This document shows positions 19,847 to 64,000 of a DNA stretch of 64,000 nt, in pieces. Location: contig NC_045142.1 of the NCBI RefSeq assembly GCF_008831285.2, positions 3,849,501-3,913,500 of the forward strand, read 5' to 3'. This stretch comes from Nymphaea colorata (Eukaryota; Streptophyta; Magnoliopsida; Nymphaeales; Nymphaeaceae). Positions within the stretch are counted from its first letter, which is position 1. Each line of letters begins with the position of its first letter. The position numbers were made by a program, and so were the translations under genes. Under the pieces are notes generated by a model. The model worked only from the letters and a program-made list of their open reading frames with translations, had not been told where the DNA came from and did not search any database.

Positions 19847-22265
19847 TGACAAGTTGATAATTCGATTTGCTGAATGTCTTGTAAAATAACCCTAATATTC
19901 CTGACAGAAGCCCTGTCCTGAATCCTTCAACTGACAAAATTAGAAAAATCTGTAGGCTGATTGATCAAGAAGCAGTCAGAAGACACTACGTCAACAAGGA
20001 GATCCATAGGACATACTTGGGTATCTCTTCAGCTCTCTCTGGATAAGGTCGTAAGGGAATGGACAAAGCTGCTCAACTCTGCAGATTGCAATATCTTTAG
20101 CACCTACTTTCTTCCGTTCTTCATCCAGTTCATAATAAACCTGCACGGTTGACAATGATTACGGTTACTTGTGAATATTGCAAGATTAAATGATTGTTTA
20201 TTTTTAACATACCTTTCCCGAGCAAAGAACCAAACGTCGGATGCCCTCCTCAAGAAGAGAGTGGTCATTCTGGTCCTTTATCAGACGCTTGAAACGTGTT
20301 CCTTGCTTGTCAAAACCTGGGTGGCCTTGGACATCATCAAACTCTGACAGATTTGATTTACAATCTTTGTGACGAAGCAGATTCTTTGGAGACATGACAA
20401 TCAACGGTTTTCTGAATTCCCTGTGTATCTGTATAAAGCAAATATTTTAATAGTTGACAATTGATTTCAGTAATGGAATATGGAAGAAAAGCTACTAAGC
20501 AATCACCTGGCGACGTAAAACGTGGAAATAATTGGCAGGAGTGGTTACATTCACAACCTGCCAATTGCACTCTTGGATCTGCTTCCTAAGAGTGGGATCC
20601 ATTTCAGGTATCACAAAAGGATTGTCATCACTCATCTGCAGTAGCAAAAAAAGCCTCAATTAGTCAACAAGCACACATTCCATAAGGCACTTTCAGACTT
20701 GCAAAGTTTGGTTGCGAAGGCAAGCACAACTTATACATACAACTTTGAAAGTGTTTGTTAAGTAAAATACTATAGCATTTCTAACTGCCATGTTGCTCTT
20801 AAGCAAGTCAGCAGAAAAAGGAAGCCACTGGAAAAGATGAAAATATACACAAGACCCAAGGGAGGTTGGTGTAGTGGGCTGAGCTTCAGCTGTCATGAAA
20901 TCAGTCAGAGTTCAAACACCATGAGAGCCATTCCCTGCATAAAGCCCAAGCATGCATACGGCAGGGCGTTGAGGGTACTAGCCTTGACGTTTTACACCCA
21001 CCAGGAGTGCGACTAAGTCTCACTGCTCAGGTGTAGTTTCCTCAATGAGAAGAAACGAGCAATCACAAATCACATACAACTGGACGAAACCAAGAGGATA
21101 AGTCAAACTACACCTGAAGAAAGCGCTCCAATCTTGCACTTGAATGCTCAGGCCCCTGGCCATCATAACCATGTGGAAGCAACACCACCAGGCCAGTTTG
21201 GCGAAGCCATTTAGACTCTCCACTACTTAAAAACTGATCAAACATTACTTGAGCACCATTTGCAAAGTCTCCAAACTGAGCTTCCCACAAGATCAGTGAA
21301 TTTGGATTTTCCATCGAATAGCCCAATTCAAACCCCAGGACACCAAATTCAGAGAGTGAGCTGGAACACAAACTCAGAATTTTAGACCATATTTTGATTA
21401 AATATGGACGCTTCAAAATTTAATTGCAAGCCCAAAATATACATGGTGTAACGTCAAAATAAAGAAAGAAGTTGCAACACTATTCATCCAAATTTTAAGC
21501 AAATATTAACTGCATTATACATCATAGAAATGCGTCAAAGGAGACCAAATTTATAGATGTCAGCAGCTAAATTAATGATTGTCACAAATAATTTGCTCTG
21601 TGCTGAGTTTTCATTTTTCCTAGCGCAATTATAAGCATTAACTAATGAATATTCTCAACCAGATTGAGTTTCATTTTTCTATGTTTTCCTAGGTGGACCT
21701 GCAATTTGGTACACCCAGAGAACCTGCCCCCTAATCTAGACTTTGCTAAGTCATCGTACTTGATAACGGTTCGGATTGAACTTTCTGGAGCATAAATTCA
21801 TAGCTAAAAAGAAACAGAATTATCAACTAGCATGCAGGATAAATTTCATAGACATTTGTCTTGGAATATTGAGAAGTAATAAACTTCATGAGAACTTAAC
21901 CAGACATACCTGTTGCTAACAGTAAACATTTCCTCATCTTGGTTTGTGGTAAGGTGATCAAGTGGGCAGTACTGCTCTCCTGTTTCCTGGTCATGCAGGA
22001 CTGCATGGCGATGGCTAAAAGTACCTCGTTCAACATCCTGACCACTCAGTCGAACATGGTTTCCTTCTACTAATAGTGTAGCAAATGCAAGTGCCTCCCC
22101 AACAGCCCAATCAATGCCTTCTCCTGTTTCAATCATCTGTGCTCGTTGCTCAAAAATCTTTTTGACTGCTCGGTGAGGCTTGAATGTCTCAGGAAGTGTG
22201 GTAATGGCTTTTCCAACGTTCTTTAGAATTTCTGGCTTCACCCTATAAAACAGCATGATGTTACA

Positions 22266-22302
<37 letters not shown>

Positions 22303-24492
22303 ATGCAAATAAAATACGTTAAAACACAAAACTATACCCTGTGTTGCGGATACGAGAAAGCTGCTCAGGAGACTTGAACCCAGACCAATATGCAGAAAGC
22401 CAATCCCTTCTCTTTGGCACATAATCTTTGCTGCTTATAAATTCTTCATTAAGAATAGAGTTCACTTTCTGATGTATTGCAGAAACATCTTCCTTAGTTA
22501 GCTGCCCAAACTCTATAAGTTGTTTCTCATAGATATCCATGGCTCGGGGATGATTCCTAATTACCTGTTTGCATTCAAAAGCAAAACCAGTTTATATCCT
22601 TTACTTGCCTGAGTAACAAAGGAAATAAAATCTACATATTCTGAGAAGCTTTTCCCAACTGAAACAGACTTCCACTAACAACCACAACACCGATAGGAAG
22701 TTGAAGAAAACCATTATCACATGATTACAGGTGAGAAACAAAGGATACCAAGTATTTTTGTAGGAAAGCTGTGGTGGAAAAGATAAACATGAAAATTGAC
22801 CAACAGAGATTACAAAATAATAATAATAATAATAATTTCCATGTACTAAGACATGCATGAAATAAAAAATGGAAAATGTCTAATAAGACTTGACTGTCAA
22901 GTTAATAAACCGTGATAATTAGAGTTAAAAGGATTTACCTGATACATTTTGGGCTGTGTAAAAGATGGCTCATCAATCTCATTGTGTCCAAACCGACGGT
23001 AACATACATAGTCCACAACCACATCTGAGTGAAATGTCTGACGCCATTCAGCAGCAAGTTCAAAAACATGAACAACAGCTTCAACATCATCACCATTGAC
23101 GTGGAAAATAGGTGCATTTAAAGCCTTTGCAACATCTGTACAATACTGAGAAGATCTACCAGATCTTGGATCAGTAGTAAATGCCACTTGGTTGTTAACA
23201 ACAATGTGAATTGTCCCACCAGTTGAATAATTTGGAAGGGCACTAAGATGCAAAGTTTCATAGACCACACCTTGTCCTGCAAAACTTCCATCCCCATGGA
23301 TCAACACACCCATGTTTTTAGTCCTATCCACATCATTAGAGTAATACTGCTTTGCCCGAGTTTTTCCAAGTACAACTGGATCCACAGCCTCTAGATGACT
23401 TGGGTTTGCCACCAAAGACAGATGAATTCTCTTCCCACCCCTGGTTGGTCGATCATAGGATGTACCCAAATGATATTTCACGTCGCCAGTTCCTGTGTAT
23501 AGCCCAACCTCATCAACAGGCTTTGTGCCACCACTAAATTCACTGAAGATTTGACGCAAGGGCTTCCTGACCACATTGCCCAAAACATTCAATCTTCCTC
23601 TGTGAGACATGCCAATAACAATACTTTCAACACCAAGATCTGCTGACCTATCAAACATTTCTTTCATACCAGGAATGAGAGTCTCTCCACCTTCAAGACC
23701 AAATCGCTTTGCTGCTGTCCACTTAGTAGCCAAGAAATTCTCAAATTCAGTGCTCCAGATAAGCCTATCAAGTATAACTTCACGGCGCTGCTGACTGTAT
23801 CCTCTTGGATTCACCGTCTCAATTTTATCTCTCAACCAGTTACACTGGTCACGGTTTGCAATATGCATGTACTCATATCCAATTGTTCCACAGTAGGCCC
23901 GTTCAAGCTTGTTCAGAATTGTTCTGAGAGTCAGAACTGGGCGATTCTCAGAAAGGAAACCAGCCATCCGCCAGACCCCAAGGAAAAACTCTCTATCCAA
24001 GTCTGCATCCGTGAAGCCGTAAAGTGCTGGATCAAGATCGACTGGTATTTCTCTTTCCTCCAATCCTAGAGGATCCAACTTAGCTTTCATGTGCCCGTTG
24101 ACTTGGTATGCTCTAACAAGCAACAAGAGACGCATACTTTCCTGAATTGTCTGCCCCGAAATCCCTGGCGAGGTTGCAGCCTGCCCAACAAAATTACGGA
24201 AGAAATTGTCCCAAGATTCATCTACACTTGATGGGTCAGCCTCCCAAGCTCTCTGCAACTCCTCCAGATAAACACTGCTCGTACCATTGAGGAAGCTATC
24301 AGTCAGCCTCGAAAGTGGCACTGGATGAGGGACAGGAGCCACTTGGGCTTGTGATTTTCGAACTGTGGAATGGAATGCGCGGCCATATGACGGAGCCGTC
24401 CATGTTCTTCGAGTCGAATAAGAAGCCCTAGCTAAGTTCTTTCTAACAGCCGCTCTGGCTAGCCCAGAAGCAGCTGCTCTAAACCAAGCCAT
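19461..24492 (-). CDS. 2-oxoglutarate dehydrogenase E1 component, mitochondrial
   Basis: Thiamine-diphosphate E1 subunit of the 2-oxoglutarate dehydrogenase complex of the citric acid cycle, in the mitochondrial matrix. Eight coding exons in transcript order: 24492-22939, 22564-22338, 22242-21910, 21360-21114, 20635-20507, 20428-20213, 20140-20017 and 19696-19461; all GT-AG, frame continuous, 3066 nt for 1021 aa, close to the usual plant length. The N-terminus (1-50) is rich in Arg, Ala and Ser with no acidic residue, as in a mitochondrial presequence. Motifs: [11 protein letters not shown] (294-304), [11 protein letters not shown] (363-373), [11 protein letters not shown] (398-408), [12 protein letters not shown] (431-442), GDD (467-469) and [11 protein letters not shown] (499-509). 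Exon 4 has [14 protein letters not shown] and exon 8 has [14 protein letters not shown], both typical of the C-terminal transketolase-like half. The unusually long first exon carries half the protein. No frameshift or missing catalytic motif was seen. Confidence 0.96.
19762..19844. repeat. Compound (AT)n(GT)n microsatellite in OGDH intron 7
   Basis: About 29 bases of AT followed by about 54 bases of TG, inside the 320-bp intron 19,697-20,016. On the gene strand it reads (CA)n(TA)n. Confidence 0.95.
20862..21010 (+). repeat. SINE-like tRNA-derived insertion in OGDH intron 4
   Basis: On the + strand, opposite to the host gene, TTGGTGTAGTGGGCTGAGC fits a Pol III A box and about 35 bases on AGAGTTCAAACACC fits a B box. 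The head resembles the copies at 27,828 and 2600. A tail boundary is not clear. The intron (20,636-21,113) still keeps intact GT-AG borders. Confidence 0.5.
22268..22300. repeat. (AT)n microsatellite in OGDH intron 2
   Basis: A run of TA dinucleotides makes up about one third of the 95-bp intron 22,243-22,337. Confidence 0.95.
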
Positions 24493-25160
24493 CTCGTAAA
24501 GGCAAGCAAGCTAATCTCGGGAACCAAATATCTTCGTTAAAGAAGCACCAAAAATCTTATTCCCCAGTATCCGTTTTTGTTTATTCTGTTTCACCTACAA
24601 ACTCTCACCAGCAGCAACAGCACGAAAACCAAATTTATCAGAAAGAAAACCAACAAATACATAAACAAAAAAAACAAAAAAATTAATCAGAAATGGCCAT
24701 AAAACGGAAAAAAATCAGAGCAACAAGACCACAATCAATCGAGAAAGACAAGCCTATGAATCCTAAAACACACAAAACAGAAGTCCATACACATCATACA
24801 TAATCGAGGAAAACATTAGTTTTGCCTTCATTCTTACCACGACCATAATCAAACAGCCCGAACAGATGAAGAGAAAACTACACATTTCTTTCCACAAATC
24901 ACAAAGACGAAGGAGAAAATGTTGGGGAGCAAATTCTTAGGCCCATCATATAGAAAGAAGAAAGCAAAAAAGAAGCGAAGAAAGCCCAACAAAGGGGAAA
25001 AAAAGAGAAGAAAATATCTCATCGAATGGTACCATAAACATCCACAATCCTTGATCCTCCGAGAAGAGAGAGAGAGAGAGAGAGAGAGACAGTCGATACC
25101 CAAAGACGGAGAGAGAGAGTCAATACCCAGAAATGGTCGGCAATTATACAAAATAATATG
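24493..25160 (-). promoter_or_regulatory. Leader and proximal promoter region of the OGDH gene
   Basis: Upstream of the ATG the gene strand carries CT tracts (plus-strand GA at 25,065-25,089 and 25,104-25,116). A TATAAT-like string lies near 25,143-25,150. The 600-bp distance and the pyrimidine-rich stretches suggest a leader intron, but I cannot fix its borders. Short ORFs on both strands through the GA tracts are not genes. Confidence 0.4.
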
Positions 25161-34885: not shown

Positions 34886-37800
34886 CAAGCGGGGGTCCTG
34901 CGCTTATCCTTGGACCTGACAGTTTGGACGGCGTAACGATCTGAATTGGCGAGGTACTTGTACGTGGGAGCGAAGTAGATTCTTCCCTCTTCCCACCCTT
35001 TGAACACGCGCCCTGCTTTTTGCTCAATTCGGAGCTGCCGACAGGAAGCCCCCAAAAAAGAAAAAGAATTAGGCTGTTCGTTGCTTTAAAGTACTCACGA
35101 CAACCTTGAAAGAGAGAACAGAGTGGTGTCTTGACTTTTTTAATCATTTTTGCGTATGAACTAGTGCTGCAAAAATTGGTCTCCGGACCGAATCAGCGGT
35201 GCTACCAGTTCGGTGAATAGGCCGACCAGAAGTACTTAAAAACAAGTTTCTAAAACAATGGAAACAATGTATAGAACTAATTATAACATAAAAAAATCTT
35301 AAAATATTCTAAAGTAATAAAAATGGAGACGTTGGTGCTCTTGATTGGCTACCTTTTTTAGTGGTGGTTGTTAAAGAGATGGAAGAAATATGCAAATCAA
35401 GTTTTTGTGTGCGCTTCTCTAAAAGCTTCCGCATGCAATGGCATGCAACAATGAACGGAACTTCTACAGGATATTTCAGCATGTCTTCTAACCTACACTG
35501 CAACATTTGACATGAACGGCATGTTGAAAGAATCGAAGACCGGCTTGACCATTTACCTGATCCTTCTCCAACAGGGCGTCCCAGTCCTTCCGTTCAAGCA
35601 ACTCGTGGGTATCTTCACGCCCATATGCTAGGCGGTAGTTTAGGTCACCAAGCCAGAAAATCCTACTGCAAATCAACGAGGGCAGCAGTTAGTTACAGTC
35701 TCAAAAGCTTTAGAGGTATCCTAAACGGAAATTTTGATACCACATTTTTTTTTCCAGAAGTCCTTTCGGAGGAAAGCCAAAACGAGGAAACCAACTATTT
35801 AGTTAAACCCTTGGAAGCCAGAGATCACCCTCATTTTTGCAAAACTACCAATCTTGAAAAATGGAAGAAACAGAATACAAAAATATTTCGTGCGTTTCTT
35901 TAGTGCAAAGATAGAGAATGTGGGGTGGACTATTTTCTTTTCCACTTTTAACGACAGAATATGAAACATATGTGGATGAAAAACTATGAATTGATGTGTG
36001 CGAAAGCGAGTGGTCTGCATTAGGGCCTACTTTAACAATTGCTTGGCAGCAGCCATGTTCTTTTCCCCTGCATCAAGTGCACTAGGACCATACAATAAAA
36101 TTGGCTAAAGCAATTATCGACACTAATATTCCATTAAAGCTTGCGGAGACAATGATTGTTCATGTCAACCGCACATTAAGGTCAACTGTCACAATGTATG
36201 CAGCCTTTTTTGCAGTTCTTTCATTCGGACACTTTCTGAAAAACAGTACAGAAGGAAGAAAAAACGGCGAGAAAATGAAAGGAATCAGGAACTCACTCAT
36301 GGCCAAGAATGTTATCAGGAGAACTTAAAGGTCCAGAGAACCTGTGAGACAGAGGGAACCTTGTCTTCCTTAGGATCTCGATGACGTCAGAATTTCTTCG
36401 AATTTCATCACCTTCTTTCTGACCGGAGGTCAAATGTGTGCAGACAAAACATAAGGAAGTCTGACGAAGAGTCAGACTGATTGAAATTGAGCCCTGTGTG
36501 AAACAGATCATACAGTTGTCCATGAAGATTTAGGGAGAAACCGCAAACCGCAATGTAGAAAAACAAAGTAGAAAATGTGCTCATTCTTCAATAAATTTGC
36601 AAAATAAGCCAACAAATGAGTTATACATTCATATTTTCCTTTAAATTTCTGGCTTCCATTTCTTTCATCCAAAAAGAAGTCACCAGTGCAAGTGAACTAG
36701 TAAAGTTCACTTCATACTTAAAAGGAAACACATAAATTTAAAAATCATTGTGCATAAAAGGATGAGTTCAATGACATTCCAGCAACTTAACTGCGTACTA
36801 GCCAAAAGAAAATACTTCTCCTCGTGCTAAAGTCTAAGCAGAAGTCAGAGTGCAGAACAGAACTAGGTCGGACTCAAGTTGAGTTGAATCGCTGTATGTA
36901 TGACATACTCATATAGCAAGCGCGAAGTAGCAGTAAAACGGAACTCACGGGTTCCAACGTACCTGGTGGCTGGTGCCACCGACTGTCAATCGCGGGCCCA
37001 AACAAAGGTCCAACAATCTGTATAAACTTTCAAGCAAGACATAGGTCTGAATCCAATAAGTGGGGCACATCAGACCATATAACCAGACTGGTTGTGCACA
37101 ACCGACAAATGGGTGGCTAGTTGAGCTGGAGGTTTGTTGGCAGTTCTATTGTTCTCCAACTGTGGTGTCTCATAAAGTAAGCGTAAAATGTGCAGTCAAC
37201 AGAATGACAAATAACCAGCGAAGAGGTGGTCGAAAAGTAACTCACCTTGTTGCCCATGTAGCCCATTAGTCCGCGACCAACGCACGAGACCTTGATACTG
37301 CTTATATGTTGTCTCAGCCCTCGGCGGACCCACACGCATAGGAACAGACCCACCATCTGCTTGCTTGCGGCCAAGCAGTATCCCACTTCCCGATGTCTCT
37401 CTTCCTCCCTCGCCGAGTCCACAAAGCCGTTCTGCTGCTCTTCGTCCAAATAGGTAAAAGTCGGGCCGTCAGAGTGGCTTTCCATGGCGAGAAGATCTGA
37501 GAAACTGACTCTGGGCTTTTGCGTTCGCCGGTTGTCATCCTCGTCGCTGAGCGTGATGGTGGTGAATATGGTGGGAGACGGGGGCTCCACAGGTGGGGCA
37601 GTCTCTCTTCCATTAAGAGCTTGACGTATAAGTGAAAGCCACCTCGCCGCAGGGCCGTGGTCCTCTGCACCTAACACGTTCCCGGCATTTAAAGGCACTA
37701 TTTCTTGAAACCTGATTCAACGAAGAGAACAGATCCCATTGAATTTTATAGTTATTTATTATGCATCCCAATTTATGCGAGCATTAATATCATCTGATCG

Positions 37801-42704: not shown

Positions 42705-42985
42705 ACTTTTTTTCTTTAAACAAGTCCTGATGGGTTCAAATAAATCGGATATCGTAAATAACGGTCCGACCCGGATATGACATTTTAATTGCAGGATTGA
42801 ATGCATATTGCTAAACGAGTAACCCAAAGCCACTATTCAGAAATTGAAGCACCACTTGTTTCTCTTTATTAAAGATCTCAATTATAAGAAACTTTTACTA
42901 TGTAACAATTTATTATCTATATCACTGCATTATAATAATATCAGAGCAATAATGGTTGTATAGTGCACAAAGTGAAACAACCAAA
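42705..42985 (+). repeat. Block A of a ~280-bp repeat shared with the 61.7-kb region
   Basis: From the T-rich run and CTTTAAACAAGTCCTGATGGG through GATATGACATTTTAATTGCA, TTCAGAAATTGAAGCACC, TTTATTAAAGATCTCAATTA, TTTTACTATGTAACAATTT to TTGTATAGTGCACA the sequence matches 61,665-61,945 in the same orientation with roughly 85 percent identity by eye. No coding capacity. It sits just upstream of the 5-phosphatase promoter. Confidence 0.85.
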
Positions 42986-47500: not shown

Positions 47501-48058
47501 GAAGAAAAAGATCAGAAGTGCTTTAGAACATAATTTTGTATGTCTTAACACAATGGTTGGTGGATTTTGTACAAGTAGTTGATCAATCAGGTGTTGGGTA
47601 GATGTTTCAAGTTTGTGTTGTAGTAAGTGAAGTAAAAAGCACCACTTAGCATTACCCAATATGAGTTCTTGATCTAAAGTTTTAAACAAAGAGCTCCCTT
47701 TGGGGTTGGGCAGGGAAACAACTATAATAAATTATGGTTATGATCATCCGATACAAAACACTACTGTTTTCAGTTATTGAGAGTAAAGATGTTCCTTGTT
47801 TCTTATAGTCATGCCTAGCTTAATTTGACACCTGAGTCTGCATATGTTTGCACTTTTTAAGTTCTTTGCCTAAACATGGCCGCACATAATGTTCCATTTC
47901 TTCCCAATTATGCAATTGTTCAAGTTGTGTCTCAGAAGATCCTGGATCTACTAGACAAATACATAAGTTTTTGTCAGTCCTGGTCGCGTGCACTGACAAC
48001 AAATGAATCAAACATCTGATATCATGTTCATTTGTACATATAATTCAATGACTTAAAG

Positions 48059-48062
<4 letters not shown>
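44536..48062. other. Intergenic DNA, no gene seen
   Basis: The 45,460-45,810 segment is GC-richer than its surroundings with overlapping ORFs on the minus strand (the longest, 45,461-45,805, 114 codons), but with no recognised domain, splice logic or homolog that I know. The remainder is AT-rich and featureless. Confidence 0.35.

Positions 48063-48105
<43 letters not shown>
48063..48105. repeat. (AT)n microsatellite
   Basis: Uninterrupted TA repeats of about 43 bases. Confidence 0.95.
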
Positions 48106-48108
<3 letters not shown>

Positions 48109-49312
48109 GATGTTAAAATTATATGTACATATGTGTGTGGGGCAACTCAATTCTGAGAATTCCATTTCAAATAATTGAACATTAAATGGGAAGATAAGAG
48201 GGAGAGTTGTCAGGGACTACCCTACAATGGGTAAGATGTGAGGGTTTTACGTTGGATGACAACTTAAGACCCTGAAATTATAGTGAAAAGAGGGCAACCC
48301 ACTAAATCATGTTACATAGATGTTCTAGAAGTCAAGATCACTTGAAGATAATATGGATCATATATGTAGATTGCTTGAAATTAAACATTTTACTACCATT
48401 ATATTTACTTTTATGATGTGCCCACATGACCCCTTCTCTATTCCCATAGAAAAGACAATTGATTGCCTTTGATCTCAGATCTATGGATTTGATGTGACAT
48501 ACTATCATTGATATGACAAAAGATAGGGACTAAGATTTACATCTCACCAAAGGAAAGTTCTTAGGTCAGACCTAAGATCTACTTTTGAGTTCTTCATTTT
48601 ATTTTATTTTTATATAAAAAGTTTTAAACCAAGATAAGGATCAGGGAGTAATTTTAAATCCATAAGACTAAACTAAGGATTTCAATCTGATGACATTTAT
48701 CAACTTAGTGACATTTATGAACTAAAACAACCTAATTTCACATTAGAGATGCCTTCATCCATTTTAGTTAAGGCATAATCAAACTTATCATTATTGTTAC
48801 TTTCCTTTTGGTTTGTGAATAGACTCATCAAACTGGGTGAGTAAGATAGCTGAACTGTAAGGTCACACTACTATTGAAAGCTCTGCATCATCATCAAATC
48901 TTTTAGGGGATTATTTTTTGCGGGCTTCTTTATTGAGAAGAGAAAAGTGGACCCATCAAATTGAAAATGAAAGGAAGAAAGAGAATGAGAAAAGATAAAT
49001 GACTATGGAAACTGAGATTTTGGATAGGAATGTTTCTGCTAATAACTCTTTAGCAGACCTACTCGTTACCATACAAAAGTAGGAATGATTTTTTGAAAAA
49101 TTGAATAAGTCATGTATGTCTTGGCAAAAGAAGGCATTATACAAGGACCACTTTGGCAACACCTTCTCCTATAATGTAAATACAACCAACATGGTGCCTA
49201 AGCAATGAATGGAACAACTGCCTTTTTACAAAAAAAGAAAAAAATTTCTATGCAAGAAAATATGAGCTATTTTTTTTAATGGATTTTTCTAGTTGAGCAA
49301 AAGGATTTAGAC
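48106..49312. other. Intergenic DNA, no gene seen
   Basis: AT-rich sequence without a supported feature. Confidence 0.4.
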
Positions 49313-56863: not shown

Positions 56864-57274
56864 TTGAGGTGTACATGGGAATTGTTAAAAAAAAGTTGGA
56901 TATCGGAAAAAATTTAAAATCCTGTTAAGAATAAAATTAAATTAATGTCTAAAAGATGATATCGGGGTTCAAGTTTGGTTTTAGATAAACATCCGACCGA
57001 CTCGATTGGATTTGTCATTAAATGAATATCCTATACGCAATATTCATATGTTTTTGAAGTTGATCAGCTTTTAATATATAATAATGTGATTTGGATTCGG
57101 TTGCTCATTTAAAAGTTGAATCCAGAATCAATTGTAAGTAGGATTCAAATTAGATTTATATTTAAAATTTTAAATTCGAATTCAGATATGATATACATCA
57201 CTTTCAGATATGGAACACCTTTTTCTTCAATCACATTCGAAGCTAAATATGAATCCGAATATATGAACACCCAA
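56864..57274. repeat. hAT-like degenerate repeat
   Basis: TTGAGGTGTACAT at the left and ATGAACACCCAA at the right are approximately inverse. The interior repeats GGATTCGGTT, AAGTTGAATCC, GATATGATATACATC. No target duplication was found. Confidence 0.35.
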
Positions 57275-57442
57275 TAAATCAGATATATATTCTATTCAAA
57301 TCTGATCCATCAACATCCTCAACTATAGTACTGCCCAAACTATGCAGTTTGGGTGCCATATCTCCAATAGCAGCACTGTAACATGCGGGTCGGTACAATG
57401 GATAAGGTACTCGAATTCTCAGGTCCTGTACTAGATCTTGCC

Positions 57443-57800
57443 TAGGTATGTCAATGTACCCAATTTGGTTCGGATATCCAGTCAAACTGATCTGAAAAAA
57501 ATCGGATATGAAGAAAATTGAATATTCGATTAAGAAATCGGATTGGATCCAGATTCATATGTACATAGATATCTGATCGGATTTGGATGTGGATTCAAAT
57601 CAAATTTATTTATTAACAAATATCCTATATCTAATGCTCTTACGAAATTGGTACAGTTTGATTCAAAATTCGGATATGAATATAAAAAATAGATTTGGAA
57701 CTAAAATTTGGATGACTTTTTTTCTTTTCATTTGCATTGGAATCCAAATATTTGAATATACGGAAAATCACATATGGTTAATTTTTTTTTATTCTTTTTA
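57443..57800. repeat. hAT-like repeat with TAGGTATGTCAATGTACCC start
   Basis: The start is a typical plant hAT MITE terminus followed by TTTGGTTCGGATATCC. Interior: GATTAAGAAATCGGATTGG, GATCGGATTTGGATGTGG, AATATCCTATATC. The right terminus is not recognised, so this is probably incomplete. Confidence 0.5.
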
Positions 57801-58084
57801 ATTATTCGATTTCCATTTTTATCCTTACAATTTTTTTTTCCAATGTGAACTAATGGTATTTAAGTCATTAGCCATACTAGCGCATCCGGTGGGTCAGATA
57901 TATTAGTTTGATCAGCAATGGGCAGATCTGCTAATCTGCAGTTCTACGTATCAACTTACATCACCTTGTTTTCATTTTTCCAATTAAAAAAAGATAATAA
58001 GTTAACCTGAAACAAAACTAAAAATATAAATCCATATCGACCTTGCAGTATAAAAAAATCCATATCGACCTTGCGGTAAAGGGT

Positions 58085-58263
58085 AGTGGTGGAGCAAAAA
58101 AATTTTTTTTTGGAGTGAGCACCCTTCACAGATTTTCGTATCTAAAGGATTCCTCATATACAGAATAAAAAAGTATTAAAAAATATTAGTTAAAAATAAA
58201 GAAATCTTGAGGAGTTGGTATGGGCACACCAGTACATATCTGGCTCTTGGCTCCCCCTCTGGT
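58085..58263. mobile_element. CAGTGGCGGAGCC-type MITE, degraded copy
   Basis: Left end AGTGGTGGAGCA and right end TGGCTCCCCCTCTG. The order CACCCTTCACAGATTTTCGTATCTAAAGG matches CACTCACAGATTTTCATATCTGAAGG of the copy at 3452-3631. Flanks GTAAAGGG and GTAAAAGA are a near match that may be the decayed target duplication. Confidence 0.55.
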
Positions 58264-58620
58264 AAAAGATCGATAAGGTGTAATGACACCTATTAACAAC
58301 CCTACCAAGAACTATGTACCCAATTAGAGCAAAGTTGAAGCATAATTCAGGGTTCATTTGGTGTTTTGGAGCAACCCATTTTTTTTTCCCGTGTTGGGGT
58401 ATACATTTTCACTTACAGCACTTTCTTAAATAATTTTACATATAAAAACAAGATAGATTGTTTATTATGTCTTTCCATCGTCGCAAGTGAAATACACAAA
58501 ACAACTAAAAAACAACTAAAAAAAGGTTGCAATCTATCACAGTAGAATCACAAGAGAAATACACAAAACAACTAAAGAAAGCTAGCAAGCTGTCACAGTA
58601 GAATGAAATAACAACATTCT
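58264..58620. other. Intergenic DNA, no gene seen
   Basis: Contains a short direct repeat, ACACAAAACAACTAAA plus (A/G)TCACAGTAGAAT, at about 58,493-58,550 and 58,561-58,602. Otherwise nothing. Confidence 0.4.
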
Positions 58621-58797
58621 TTATTTTTCAACCTCCTCGTTCATTTGCGAAAACATTTTTTTGATGAAATTTTCTGCTCTAGCGACCAGGTTCGTCTTCT
58701 TCCACCTCCCCTTCTTCCCTAATTTGATCCTCGCAAATGGTTGGGATCTCAATGACAACACCATCACCTAAGGTGGCTCATTCATCTTCCTTATATT
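58621..58797 (-). pseudogene. Exon-2 relic of the small DUF761-like gene family (copy 0)
   Basis: On the minus strand, an acceptor TTTACAG (58,798) is followed by sequence clearly homologous to exon 2 of the intact copy (58,958-59,383) and ending at a stop at 58,621. It is broken by an in-frame TGA near its start and by an extra base near the middle. It also lacks exon 1: upstream on this strand is T-rich DNA and then the divergent start of the intact copy. Head-to-head with that copy. Confidence 0.75.
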
Positions 58798-58957
58798 CTG
58801 TAAACGGCTACAAAAATCAAAACAGCACAAAGAATTTTTTTTTTCAACAAAAAAATCTTAGACACCTCGTGTTTGGCTTTATTAAATAAGTTTTTTTTTT
58901 TTATATATTTCTAACAACTTTATTCATTTCTTTTTGTCTTTTTAAATAGCTTATAGA

Positions 58958-59383
58958 ATGACAAAATTGACGGTTGGAGGGCTGCTAGACTCCGACAAGA
59001 TGGGGCAATTGGGTGTTGTTGGGATATTAGTCTTTGGCTTTAGCATGATCGTTGTATTCCTTGCCAAAGTCGTCGCCATAGTCATCGCTTGCTGCCACCT
59101 CTACAACGACGGCCACGGTACATCACTTTCTTTTCTTACCATTTAACTTCACTGTGTAATTTGTTTCAGTTATGCTGACTTTGACTTTTTGTTGCAGTTT
59201 ACATAAGATAACGAAGTTAGAGGTGCCACCTTAGGTGATGGTGTAGTCATTGAGATGCGAAGCATGTGCGAGGATCGAAGTAGGGAGGGAGGGGAGGTGG
59301 AAGAGGCGGACAAACTCTTCGCCAGATCCGAGAATTTCATCCAAAAGTTCTTTCGGCAAATGAAAGAAGAGGATGAAGAATAA
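58958..59383 (+). CDS. Small single-pass membrane protein with DUF761-like tail
   Basis: Function unknown. Two exons, 58,958-59,117 and 59,208-59,383 (GT-AG intron of 90 bp), encode 111 aa. Residues about 18-48 form one long hydrophobic segment (VVGILVFGFSMIVVFLAKVV and following) ending ACCHLY; the rest is charged and very acidic (EEADKLFARSENFIQKFFRQ and EEDEE at the end). The tail pattern, acidic stretch then Phe-Ile-x-x-Phe with basic residues, resembles the C-terminal motif of plant DUF761 (cotton-fibre protein) family members. It is the only copy of a local cluster of six with an unbroken frame. The acceptor expected from other copies (ACAG) reads ACAT here; using the AAG three bases on keeps the frame. 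The GCAG further upstream would lead to an early stop. I am fairly sure of the exon model from comparison with copies; less sure of expression and of the family name. Confidence 0.55.
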
Positions 59384-59921
59384 AGAAGGTTGATCTGTTT
59401 AGACTTTAGATTAAGCTTATTTGGTTATTGATGTTATTTTGGAGTTTGAATCTTTGATTATTGGACTCGAGAAGCAATTCGGATATATGGTCGGGCAACT
59501 TGAAGGTTCTTCTTGTTTTGTTTAGGGCTAATTGGCATTGAGAAAAACCACGATTGATTATCGAATTTTCCTCATTCTGTAAGCTATTTAAAAGGACAAA
59601 TTAGAATCATTGGGTGACACTGCTATTTTGAAATTAGGGTGTTATAGTTTTTTTTTTTTGTCTCCATGTCTTGTTTTTTATTTTTAAAAAAAAAATTAAA
59701 GATTTTTTTTTTCAAAAAAACTTTTTTTTAAAAAAACCTTTTTCAAAAAAATCTTTTTTTTAAAGAAATCTTGATGGATTAAATAAATAAATAAATTGCA
59801 TTCAAGGGTTTACCTTTTGGCGGTAATTTTAAATATGGGAAATGTAGTTTCTATCTTTCTGATGCGAGTCTCAGTTCTGCAAATAATCCCTAAAAAAGAA
59901 TTTCTGTTTGATAATTACAAA
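59384..59921. other. Spacer within the small-gene cluster
   Basis: Includes the 3' region of the intact copy and then T-rich low-complexity DNA (59,650-59,760) followed by TCTTGATGGATTAAATAAAT and GCATTCAAGGG, a promoter-side sequence shared with 60,620-60,855. Confidence 0.45.
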
Positions 59922-60050
59922 ATGGCAAAATTGGCGTTTGGCGCTCTCTGCAACATAATGGGGCAATCGGCTACTGTTGACATCTTGGCATGCAGCAGGT
60001 TATTTGTCTTAACCGGCAATAGAAAGAGAAGGTTGATGTATGAAGATTGA
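59922..60050 (+). pseudogene. Internally deleted copy of the small gene family (copy 2)
   Basis: The first ~25 codons (ATGGCAAAATTGGC, GGGGCAATCGGCTAC) match exon 1 of the family. They are then joined directly to the end of exon 2 (GGCAATAGAAAGAGAAGGTT). The membrane segment, intron and most of the acidic tail are missing and the final frame differs. The upstream 140 bp are nearly identical to those of copy 3. Confidence 0.7.
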
Positions 60051-60509
60051 GTAACTGGGATCCTGACTTTGTCGTAAGTGGTAAATATTTCTGATCACAG
60101 TGTAACTGATAAGTCTGATATATCATGTCTTTGACTCTTTCTTCTTAAATGAAAGAACCTGTACACCCAAGTTTGTTTGCATGTATTTGTTTCTTCTTTG
60201 GTTTGAATGTCAGTGGCTTCAGAAGGTTGTAGCCTCCATAATCAAATGAGTTTCGTTCTTTTTCCTGTACTTTTAGTTTTGAAATGCATTGTTGGGTTCT
60301 TTATTGGGTTTCTCTGCCAAGCCTTTTTTTCATGTCTTTGGAGAACCTTGTAGTTTTAGAGCTTTAGAGTTATAATCTTTTTTGAAAACTTTACAACTTT
60401 GCCAAACGGCAAGAAAAAGTCAAAGTCAACATAAAAAATTTTGTTAATAAAAACCAACCAAAACCAATTATACAGTAAAGCAGAATGGTAATAAGAGAAA
60501 GTGATACAC
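60051..60509. other. 3' side of copy 2, duplicated downstream of copy 3
   Basis: GTAAGTGGTAAATATTT, ATCACAGTGTAACTGATAAG, ACTCTTTCTTCTTAAATGAA, CACCCAAGTTTGT, TTCTCTGCCAAGCC, GAAAACTTTACAACTT recur in order at 61,270-61,567. These probably correspond to the 3' UTR and flank of the ancestral gene. Confidence 0.6.
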
Positions 60510-60573
60510 CATGGCATTTGCCGCCGTTGCAGAGGCAGCAGCAGGCGAGGACCATGATGACCATGAGGACCAT
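60510..60573 (-). pseudogene. Exon-1 fragment of the small gene family (copy 2b)
   Basis: Minus strand reads the end of exon 1 (CCTCGCCTGCTGCTGCCTCT then GCAACGGCGGCAAATGCCATG) followed by a donor GTG and an intron-like sequence shared with copy 4. The 5' part of exon 1 is missing: at 60,573 the sequence changes abruptly to AAATTAGGGTGTTATAG, which also occurs at 59,633. Confidence 0.65.
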
Positions 60574-60855
60574 AAAATTAGGGTGTTATAGTTTATTTTT
60601 TTGGTCTCCGTATCTTGTTTTTCTTTTTTTTAAAAAAAACTTATTTTTTTTTAAAAACTTTTTTTTTAAATGAACTTTTTTTTAAAAGAACTTTTTTTTA
60701 AAGAAGTCTTGATGGGTTAAATAAATAAATTGCATTCAAGGGTGTACCTTTTGGTGGTAATTTTAAATATGGGAATGTAGTTTCTATCTTTTCTGATTCG
60801 AGCCTAAATTCTGCAAATAATCCCTAAAAAAGAATCTCTATTTCATAATTACAGA

Positions 60856-61238
60856 ATGGCAAAATTGGGGTTTGGCGCTCTCTGCGACAGAATGAGGCAA
60901 TCGGCTACAGGCATGGTGTCATGGTGCTCGCCATGGCCCTCGCCTGTTGCCGCATCTGCAACGGCGGCAAACGCCATGGTATATTACTTTCTTTTATTAC
61001 AATTAATTTGTTTCGGTTGTTTTTTATTAACAAAATTCTCTATGCGAAATTTGACTTTTTGTTGCCACTTACATAACATAGCAAAGATGAAGGAAATGGT
61101 GTCATGATAGAGATGCCAACCATTTCTGGTGATCAAACTTGGGTGGAAGGGGAGGAAGAAGCGGACGAACTATTCCCTAATGCAGAGAGGTTCATCAGAG
61201 ATTTTTACTGGCAACAGAAAGAGAAGGTTGAGGTATGA
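60856..61238 (+). pseudogene. Frameshifted copy of the small gene family (copy 3)
   Basis: Exon 1 (60,856-60,978) has the family start ATGGCAAAATTGGGG and the donor CATGGTATAT, but lacks about 13 bases in the membrane segment, shifting the frame. Exon 2 (about 61,082-61,238) keeps a full family tail on paper (EEEADELF, ERFIRDFYW) but cannot be read in frame from exon 1; the predicted join stops after three codons. Recently inactive, since the tail is well preserved. Confidence 0.7.
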
Positions 61239-61664
61239 AGATTGAGCAACTCGGATTTTGACTTTGTTGTAAGTGGTAAATATTTTTTATCACAGTGTAA
61301 CTGATAAGTCTGACATATCAGGTCTTTAACTCTTTCTTCTTAAATGAAGCAACCAGTACACCCAAGTTTGTGTGCATGCAGTTGTTTCTTTTTTGGTTCT
61401 AATTTCAGTGGCTTCAGAATGTCCCAGCTTCCATAATGAAACGAGTTTCGTTCTTTTCCTGTACTTTTAGTTGGGTTTCTCTGCCAAGCCTCTTTTTCAT
61501 GCCTTTGGAGAACCACGTGGTTTTAAAGCTTTACAGTCATAATCTTTTTTGAAAACTTTACAACTTGCTATTAAAAAGAACTTAAAAAAAGAACTTAAAA
61601 AAACTTTTTTTTAACAAAACTTAAAAAAAAAACTTTTTTTAAACAAAAACTTTTTTTTTCTTTA
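61239..61664. other. 3' side of copy 3, no separate gene
   Basis: Duplicate of the 60,051-60,390 flank, then A/T low-complexity DNA with repeated AAAACTTTTTTT. Confidence 0.5.
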
Positions 61665-61945
61665 AAGAAGTCTTGATGGGTTTCCAAATGAATCAGATAT
61701 CATAAATAACGACTCGACCGAGATATGACATTTTAATTGCAAGATTAGATGCATATTGCCAAACTAGTAATGCAAAGTCATCAATACAAGTGTTCAGAAA
61801 TTGAAGCACCTTTGTTTCACTTTATTAAAGATCTCAATTATAAGAATCTTTTACTATGTAACAATTTGTTATCTATAGCAGTGCATTAGAATAATATCAT
61901 AAGAATAATGATTGTATAGTGCACAGGTTGAAAGATGAAGTTAAA
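61665..61945 (+). repeat. Block B of the ~280-bp repeat shared with 42.7 kb
   Basis: Matches block A (42,705-42,985) along its length in the same orientation. Starts with the GAAGTCTTGATGGG that also precedes copies 2 and 3. A 23-bp stretch inside (61,890-61,912, AATAATATCATAAG onward) recurs exactly at 62,008-62,030. Confidence 0.85.
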
Positions 61946-62014
61946 TGAAAGAACTTAAACATAAGCATTCCTTTTTTATATCACCAACATCCTTCATACC
62001 TGAACCTAATAATA

Positions 62015-62372
62015 TCATAAGAATAATGATGCTTCTTCCACCTCCCCTTCCACCCTAGTTTGATCACCAGAAATGGTTGGGATCTCTATCGCAACACCAT
62101 CTCCTTTATCTTTGTTATCTTCTGTAAATGGAAACAACAAGTCAAAGTCAGCAAAAAGAATTTTGTTAATAGAAACCAACCAAAACAAATTATATAGTGA
62201 AGCTGAATGGTAATAAGAGAATGATATACCGTGGTGTTTGCCGCCGTTGCAAAGGCGGCAACAGGCGAGGACCATGACGACTATGCTAAAGCCGCATGCT
62301 AGGAGCACAATAGCAGCCGATTGTCCCATTCTGCCACGGAGCACACCAAACGCCGATTTTTCCAGATCACTA
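62015..62372 (-). pseudogene. Truncated and chimeric copy of the small gene family (copy 4)
   Basis: Exon 1 remnant is 62,372-62,230 and encodes the membrane segment (IVLLACGFSIVVMVLACCRL) but the start codon region is replaced by LINE sequence (CTGGAAAAATCGG where other copies have ATGGCAAAATTGG). Exon 2 runs from 62,121 after an intact ACAG acceptor. It breaks off after the acidic GEVEEA stretch, where a 23-bp repeat of the 61.9-kb block takes over and supplies a stop at 62,015. The DUF761-like end is missing. Confidence 0.7.
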
Positions 62373-64000
62373 CTGGAAAGGTTAGTCGCCAACACCTGCT
62401 TTGCCATCCTCTCTTGAAAGAGGAGGCGATCCACCACTTGATACCTTGTGAGAAAGACCTGAAAGTCGGACAAGATTTGTGGAATTTGGTGAGGATGTGC
62501 TGCCAAAGGCCAGTAGTAAACGGACAAACAAAGAATAGGTGATCTATAGACTCTTCCTGAGACATGCAGAGAGGGCATCGATTCGGCAAATGAAATCCTC
62601 TCCGTTGGAGGTTGTCAATAGTACGCAATTTACCCTCACTCGCGATGTAAGCGTACCACTGGGCTCTTGGGAGAACAACAGCATTCCAAATAGCCTTTTT
62701 CCAATAGAGGGAGTCACCTTTCTTTCTGATGTCCTCCCAAATAAGCTTACGTTTCCCCAATCTAAGCCCCTCCGTTGCCAGGAATCTTGAGATTGAGATA
62801 GGTAGACACAGTTAAGATGAGGTAGAACACACATAGTCAAGCTTTTCGCATCAAGGTCATCCTGAGTAGCAGTCTTGAAATCTGCAACATAAATAGAACT
62901 CATGGCCTCTAGGATATAGAACATAGATGAGGGAACTTTGAACAACAAAATGCCCTCCCCCCAATCTTCCAGCCACGCATGAGCAGTAAAACCATTCTCC
63001 ATAGACCATCTAACCTCTTTTCTAATGGCATCCCAACTCCATTCTATTCCTTTCCAAAGCCAGGAGTCTTTGACCTTGCCCTTGCGAGTCCAGAGACTAT
63101 AGTTCCTTAGGTACTTCTTGGAGACAAGGGATGCCCAAGGAGATTTCGCATGGCCAACTTCCAAAGCAAGCTTTCTCAAGCAAGCTCTATTTAGGTTTGT
63201 GGTACTTCTCAAGCCTATAGCGCCCTCCTCTTTCGGTCTGCAAAGCTTTTTTCATGCAACTGAATGATGTTTGCGGCAATCTGGATTAGAGCCCCATAAA
63301 AAATTAGCAGCAAGGGATTGAAGTACCTGAATAATCTTTTGCGGAAGTTTGAAAGGAGAACACCAGAAAAATATAAGGGGCATAAAAGAAGATTGGAGTG
63401 GGCACAACCTGCTCGCATAGGAGAGGAGCAAGGCCTTCCAAGAGGCCAACTTCTTTTGAACTATCAAAACAAGAGGTTGACAAAGTTGGAAACTAAGTTT
63501 CCCCACAAAGAGAGGAAGCCCCAAATAGTTGAGTGGAAGGGAGGCAAGGGGCCAGCCAGTAGAGGCCACAACCAAGTTACTCACATCTTCCTGAGCATTG
63601 AACTTTACCAATCTTGACTTTTCATCATTAACTCTTATGCCAGCTTTGGACTCAAAATCGACTATAATACTTTTGATTTCTTGGAACTACTCAAGCTTAA
63701 GTGGGAGGAAGAAAATAATTTCATCAGCAAAAAACAATTCCACTGGTGCTTTCCCAACCCTTGGCAGAGTTGGCCCACTCAGCTTTTTAGTGTTCACACT
63801 GTGTAGAATATGCCTATGAAGACATTCCATGATAACAATGAAAAGGAGGGGTGACATTGGATCACCTTGTCTGAGGCCTCGAGTACTATTAAAGTACTGA
63901 CCCACAACCCCATTGACTGAGATTGCAATTGAAGCTGTGGAGACGCATGTCATAATGCGTGCAATCCAAATATCATGAAAACCCATCGAAAGAAGTGAAT
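62372..64000 (-). mobile_element. Degenerate LINE (L1-type) ORF2, 3' part
   Basis: Non-LTR retrotransposon on the minus strand, continuing past the right edge. In order: reverse transcriptase core (GLRQGDPMSPLLF), an active-site block reading FFADE where FADD is expected, LNYLGLPLFVGKLS, then a long linker and a zinc-binding domain of the RVT type (NRCPLCM, then IDHLFFVCPF). The frame has two nonsense codons that stand where tryptophan is usual (63,687-63,689 TAG; 63,252-63,254 TGA) and one frameshift near 62,780. The 3' end stops within the coding region near 62,372, with no poly-A. Defective. Confidence 0.9.

What the first reader, a model, noticed from the sequence alone, without database searches (positions are those of the whole stretch)
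58621..62372. Six-copy cluster of an orphan-like two-exon membrane protein gene in mixed orientation
In 3.7 kb there are copies at 58,621 (-), 58,958 (+), 59,922 (+), 60,510 (-), 60,856 (+) and 62,015 (-). All derive from one gene with a single membrane segment and an acidic DUF761-like tail. One copy is open; the others have internal deletion, frameshift, missing exon or chimeric end. Inverted copies of a transcribed gene are the classic arrangement for making double-stranded RNA, so the cluster could silence the intact copy or related genes. Sequence relations are seen; the silencing role is inference.
Basis: partly seen in the sequence, partly recalled or inferred. Interest (0 to 1): 0.8.

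Follow-up and report, generated by a model that had tools for sequence, protein, structure and literature searches.

The report
Debris cluster of duplicated plant gene
Six broken or drifting copies of a small membrane-protein gene lie jumbled in a plant chromosome, apparently left by repeated duplication and DNA-break repair; their inverted layout could make double-stranded RNA, but nothing seen here shows that it does.

Summary
In detail: six partial or whole copies of a two-exon gene lie at the stated places and orientations. Two points need correcting. The copies come from two sub-branches: A and B group with an array on contig C13; C, D, E, F group with two open genes at 1.44 and 1.54 Mb of the same contig. 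And the gene is no orphan within this genome: protein searches listed 34 exon matches each, mostly on C5, with open members elsewhere. The cluster is a mosaic: a convergent (+,-) pair duplicated in tandem, with fragments matching sites on C1 and C4, a 23-base filler copy, deletions and a LINE junction stitched in. The open copy, B, has an altered splice acceptor, and its ratio of amino-acid to silent changes is what no selection would give. Three inverted pairs meet the geometry of published rice siRNA hairpins, so double-stranded RNA is possible. But at most 20 bases of any window arm match B exactly, so silencing of B is weakly supported; better matched inverted pairs of the family lie elsewhere. 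Best reading: ordinary pseudogene debris of an expanding gene family, with unproven hairpin potential.

The parts
58612..58841 (-). Copy A: exon 2 plus part of the intron, frameshifted, no exon 1; sub-branch of B
   Evidence: 79% to B over 223 columns; frames broken; 83-86% to five of the six C13 array copies; tree
58958..59383 (+). Copy B: exon 1 58958-59117, intron 59118-59207, exon 2 59208-59383; 111 aa open if the AAG acceptor is used
   Evidence: Translation; own-genome relatives 69-70% over both exons; change ratio as without selection
59631..60399 (+). Left tandem unit U1, holding copy C (59922-60050, deleted between exon 1 and the end of exon 2)
   Evidence: 86.7% and 82.9% to U2 at 60575-60908 and 61204-61566
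60049..60111 (+). Fragment matching C4:13680509-13680571, 87%
60123..60400 (+). Fragment matching C1:34418538-34418815, 90%, the one site listed outside the cluster for this piece
60404..60570 (-). Copy D: second half of exon 1 plus intron; cut off at the unit junction
   Evidence: 85.8% to F over 162 columns
60575..61566 (+). Right tandem unit U2, holding copy E (60856-61240; exon 1 with internal deletion, exon 2 open)
61653..61933 (+). Repeat between E and F, second copy at 42707-42977 (84%)
62008..62030 (.). 23-base exact copy of 61890-61912 sitting where the tail of F exon 2 is missing (filler-like)
62031..62364 (-). Copy F: exon 1, intron and front of exon 2; start-codon region joined to LINE sequence
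   Evidence: 80.6% to E over 252 columns; 86% to L031/L032 over 231 columns
62299..63986 (-). Broken LINE, C-terminal part (RVT-like and zf-RVT pieces), whose end runs into copy F
   Evidence: zf-RVT E 1.8e-20; RVT_1 E 1.4e-5, below its cut-off

Best explanation
A graveyard of a locally expanding plant gene family. Shown: copies of two sub-branches lie together; one convergent pair (gene +, gene -) is present as two tandem units, C/D and E/F; pieces that match C1 and C4 are joined in; there are internal deletions, a 23-base filler copy and a LINE junction. Inferred: the stitching was done by error-prone repair of double-strand breaks (end joining with templated filler), and no copy here is under selection, B included. 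Double-stranded RNA from read-through is possible by geometry but is at most a side effect.
For: Tandem units and their junctions; two sub-branches, supports 99/97 (C,D,E,F with two genes) and 95/93 (A,B with eight rows); C1 and C4 fragments, and of 11 listed matches, 5 of them outside the cluster, none spans two of the pieces; filler copy; B amino-acid changes 17.5 (exon 1) and 19 (exon 2) against 18.4 and 19.1 expected without selection, while some family pairs show constraint, e.g. dN/dS 0.22 between the genes at 6.43 and 6.62 Mb and 0.08-0.34 in the 15 pairs with the 7.08-Mb gene; the ACAG acceptor of A, F and T1 reads ACAT in B; open paralogues elsewhere.
Against: B is open with a GT donor and could be spliced at AAG; T2 to T5 also lack ACAG, so that loss alone does not condemn B. 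Staying open had a 0.49 (exon 1) and 0.45 (exon 2) chance in the simulation, so openness says little either way. Eight codons of B absent from the relatives were left out of that test. Pairwise dN/dS of B runs 0.24-0.77 with one value of 0.09 at saturated silent sites, all below 1. Other family pairs reach 1.2 (T2/T5, E/X32), so constraint in the family is uneven. The repair mechanism is read from structure alone.
Confidence: 0.8

Rival explanations
1. Silencing locus: read-through transcripts of E-F (or transcripts spanning A-B) fold into hairpins, are diced, and lower expression of family members, by sequence most plausibly those of the C13 array rather than B.
For: Three inverted pairs with stems of 149-252 columns and loops of about 340-870 bases; plus-strand duplex energies -249, -171 and -409 kcal/mol against shuffle means of -86, -58 and -145; A shares 35 exact bases and F 26 with the coding sequence of array copy T2; a rice inverted pseudogene pair of 83% identity, 185-nt stem and 1,283-nt loop had mapped small RNAs (PMC2708354, passages).
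Against: Longest perfect arm runs 24 (E/F), 20 (A/B), 17 (D/E); at most 20 exact bases to B and 17 to the open genes at 1.44, 1.54, 6.62 and 7.08 Mb; array copies T1, T2, T3 and T5 lack a GT donor; no RNA evidence.
Confidence: 0.1
2. B is a working gene and the rest are its family's debris.
For: Open frame with usable splice sites; the family is real and has constrained members.
Against: B's changes match a no-selection model in both exons; its acceptor is altered, and using the upstream CAG at 59195-59197 gives an early stop.
Confidence: 0.12
3. The mosaic is a gene-capturing transposon (Helitron or Pack-MULE type).
For: Pieces matching several chromosomes joined in one unit.
Against: No inverted repeats of 40 bases or more in 57000-64000 other than gene copies and AT-rich runs; no listed match spans two pieces. 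Helitron ends were not tested.
Confidence: 0.07

Closest known systems
Inverted pseudogene pairs giving hairpin siRNAs in rice (PMC2708354; abstract part and passages seen)
   Different: There small RNAs were mapped; here there are no RNA data. Here several pairs of two sub-branches sit in one 3.7-kb cluster
Rearranged duplicated gene cluster at maize p1/p2 (PMC2686159; abstract and section headings seen)
   Same: Chimeric copies, filler DNA and non-homologous end joining in a duplicated plant gene
   Different: The P1-wr array is eleven nearly perfect head-to-tail repeats; here the order is mixed and most copies are broken
Plant proteins with a C-terminal DUF761 motif (Pfam PF05553)
   Same: Short C-terminal motif after a hydrophobic segment; DUF761 is the top or only listed hit for 4 of the 8 family sequences scanned (E, X27, T2, X23p)
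   Different: All four stay below the curated cut-off; the other four (B, F frame, X30, X31) give no DUF761 row

Membership tests
DUF761 (PF05553) | Score at or above the Pfam gathering cut-off (22 bits) | tested here: not met
   Best 16.3 bits (gene at 7.08 Mb); X23p exon 2 15.8; T2 13.7; copy E 12.3; B, F, X30, X31 no DUF761 row
DUF761 (PF05553) | Motif at the C-terminal end after a hydrophobic N-terminus (recalled layout) | tested here: inconclusive
   Sub-threshold matches lie at the end (residues 69-88 of 92; 82-94 of 105) and exon 1 reads as hydrophobic; no membrane predictor was run
Hairpin-forming inverted pseudogene pair (rice criteria) | Opposite strands, stem >100 bp, loop <2 kb | tested here: met
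   A/B, D/E and E/F
Hairpin-forming inverted pseudogene pair (rice criteria) | Small-RNA density on the arms | not testable with these tools
   No small-RNA library available
Pack-MULE | Long terminal inverted repeats flanking captured fragments | tested here: not met
   All 9 inverted pairs of at least 40 bases listed in 57000-64000 are gene copies or AT-rich runs; shorter or diverged repeats would be missed
Pack-MULE | Target-site duplication | not tested
   No element ends defined
Helitron | 5' TC and 3' CTRR ends with a hairpin, insertion between A and T (recalled) | not tested
   No ends defined

The most novel reading that the evidence does not exclude
The family repeatedly makes inverted pairs (5 of the 8 multi-copy loci I examined hold at least one), and some, above all the pair at C5:6.792 Mb with 90% alike arms and 32 bases identical to the open gene at 6.618 Mb, make small RNAs that tune the family's open members: a hairpin-rich family regulating itself, of which the window cluster is a decayed case.
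Probability: 0.07. Interest if true: 0.6.

Novelty: new member of a known kind. Interest (0 to 1): 0.25.

Why it matters
It is a clear example of how a small plant gene family spreads and breaks, mixing sub-branches and unrelated fragments in one cluster. If small RNAs were found, the same family offers inverted pairs of graded identity (68-90%) for asking when a decayed duplicate stops feeding RNA silencing.

Tried and rejected
Single-source origin of the six copies: rejected by the tree. Silencing of B through near-perfect matches: weakened by exact-match counts. Excess of inverted over direct neighbours in the family: not seen, 9 inverted to 8 direct among 17 neighbouring pairs in 8 loci of my choosing. 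Structured RNA families at gathering thresholds and tRNAs in the window: none. Papers on DUF761: listings only; nothing there was followed up. Listings only also. I make no claim that this family is not in print.

Errors of mine, redone or dropped: copy B was taken in the wrong frame and fell out (redone); the F row of exon 1 is in the wrong frame and is not used; the splices of X31, X32 and T2 were wrong (redone); rows L31, L32 and L23a were poorly placed. One search was run on 32 rows of my own choosing (six copies and 26 fetched relatives; seven rows under half filled, winD flagged for odd composition). Weak matches at C5:6380325 and 6559709 were not fetched. The consensus is a simple majority of relatives (five rows for exon 1, six for exon 2).

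Full report
What is there. The window is bases 3,849,501-3,913,500 of contig C5 in a genome of 407.8 Mb in 783 contigs. Six copies of one two-exon gene type lie in 58,612-62,364: A (-), B (+), C (+), D (-), E (+), F (-). Copy-to-copy E-values run from 8e-7 (C/F) through 4e-48 (A/B) and 8e-64 (E/F) to about 1e-114 (C/E with upstream flank).

The copies. B has exon 1 at 58,958-59,117, a GT donor at 59,118 and exon 2 at 59,208-59,383, giving 111 amino acids if AAG is the acceptor. The ACAG acceptor seen in A, F and T1 reads ACAT in B; T2 to T5 lack it too. Using the CAG ten bases upstream gives an early stop. A has exon 2 only and is frameshifted. C is deleted between exon 1 and the end of exon 2. 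D holds the second half of exon 1 and the intron. E has an internal deletion in exon 1 and an open exon 2. F has exon 1, the intron and the front of exon 2, and its start region is joined to LINE sequence (zf-RVT E 1.8e-20).

Order of events. 59,631-59,974 matches 60,575-60,908 at 86.7%, 60,009-60,399 matches 61,204-61,566 at 82.9%, and D matches F at 85.8%. So [C, D] and [E, F] are two tandem copies of one older convergent pair. The left unit breaks off inside exon 1 of D; nine bases after the end of the D/F alignment the right unit starts. The right unit carries an extra stretch between E and F, including a repeat also present at 42,707-42,977. Where F's tail is missing sits a 23-base exact copy of 61,890-61,912. 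The unit's 3' part matches C1:34,418,538-34,418,815 at 90% (60,123-60,400) and C4:13,680,509-13,680,571 at 87% (60,049-60,111). Of the 11 matches listed for 59,620-60,400, five lie outside the cluster and none of these spans two pieces; the tool skips very common words, so absence is not proof. The C1 site lies on the same strand as, and upstream of, open frames that I take from recall for exons of a syntaxin gene; Pfam gave no hit at E<=0.01 to the six frames tried there. Which site is donor and which recipient was not tested. Deletions, filler and stitched fragments are, from general knowledge, marks of error-prone break repair; the maize p locus is a published case with filler DNA (PMC2686159, abstract and headings). 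That reading is inference.

The family. A DNA search with B found 14 matches, four of them in the window, among them a head-to-tail array on C13 in which local alignment shows six copies. Protein searches with B and with the gene at 7.08 Mb each listed 34 exon matches at E<=1: 21 on C5, 11 on C13 and 2 on C11 in the first; 27, 5 and 2 in the second (the tool calls its counts lower bounds). Open two-exon members include those at C5 7.08, 6.62, 1.54 and 1.44 Mb. The last two carry two and three copies of an in-frame 69-base acidic repeat. In a tree of 32 rows, A and B fall with the C13 array and the two copies at C5 2.61 Mb (ten rows, 95/93), while C, D, E and F fall with the genes at 1.44 and 1.54 Mb (six rows, 99/97). 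The cluster therefore mixes two sub-branches. DUF761 is the top or only hit for 4 of 8 family sequences scanned, always below its cut-off (best 16.3 of 22 bits).

Is B a gene? Against a majority consensus of relatives, B shows 17.5 amino-acid-changing and 8.5 silent changes in 45 codons of exon 1, and 19 and 7 in 58 codons of exon 2. Five thousand runs of random change, each transition weighted twice a transversion, give means of 18.4 and 19.1 changing (as few or fewer in 37% and 53% of runs) and leave the frame open in 49% and 45%. Eight codons of B that the relatives lack were left out. So B looks unconstrained, though its pairwise dN/dS to relatives is below 1 throughout (0.24-0.77, and 0.09 at saturated silent sites). 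Elsewhere constraint is uneven: dN/dS is 0.22 between the genes at 6.43 and 6.62 Mb and 0.08-0.34 in the 15 pairs with the 7.08-Mb gene, with silent sites near saturation in several, but about 1.2 for T2/T5 and E/X32.

Could it silence? Stems and loops by BLAST are 223 columns and about 340 bases (A/B), 149 and about 375 (D/E), 252 and about 870 (E/F). These satisfy the geometry used in rice. Duplex energies are well beyond 20 shuffles each. Against this, longer arm alignments are 76-80% identical with longest perfect runs of 20, 17 and 24. The longest exact match of a window arm to B is 20 bases (A), and 15 or fewer for D, E and F. To the open genes at 1.44, 1.54, 6.62 and 7.08 Mb it is 17 or fewer. 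To array copy T2 it is 35 (A) and 26 (F). Of four inverted pairs of the family elsewhere, three have closer arms: 85% at 3.95 Mb (loop 2.6 kb, outside the rice criterion), 83% at 14.2 Mb and 90% at 6.79 Mb; the pair at 2.61 Mb aligns at 68% with many gaps. The 6.79-Mb pair shares 32 bases with the open gene at 6.62 Mb. Inverted neighbours are not in excess: 9 inverted and 8 direct of 17 neighbouring pairs.

Verdict. Pseudogene debris assembled by duplication and break repair explains what is seen. Silencing is possible by geometry, unlikely for B, and untested.

Noticed in passing
C5:6,792,274-6,793,215 (L033 2775-2989 and 3510-3716): Inverted pair of the same family with 90% alike arms, a loop of about 520 bases and 32 bases identical to the open gene at C5:6.618 Mb; a better siRNA candidate than the window cluster.
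   Followed up: partly
C5:1,535,257-1,535,754 (L031) and C5:1,443,471-1,444,037 (L032): Two near-identical open genes about 91 kb apart on opposite strands that differ in the number (2 and 3) of an in-frame repeat, GDGEIEIPTISSDHTWVEEEVEE.
   Followed up: partly
C13:5,827,176-5,832,979 (L009): Array of six head-to-tail copies whose intron donors read GC or AC in the four copies checked (T1, T2, T3, T5), so their splicing is doubtful.
   Followed up: partly
window 42707-42977 and 61653-61933: Repeat, 84% alike; genome copy number unknown because the search did not complete.
   Followed up: no
window 48029-48133: Imperfect palindrome of about 105 bases (77% over 112 columns).
   Followed up: no
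C5:3,606,879-3,607,961 (L043 4380-5462): Inverted repeat of about 320 bases (78%) sharing the region upstream of copies C and E; the tblastn at E<=0.1 gave no exon of the gene there.
   Followed up: no
window 21846-24510, minus strand: Exons of a 2-oxoglutarate dehydrogenase E1-type gene (E1_dh E 2.6e-49, 2-oxogl_dehyd_N 8e-16, Transket_pyr 7e-9).
   Followed up: no
window 37117-37716, minus strand: Exon of an endonuclease/exonuclease/phosphatase-family gene (PF22669, E 1.8e-9).
   Followed up: no
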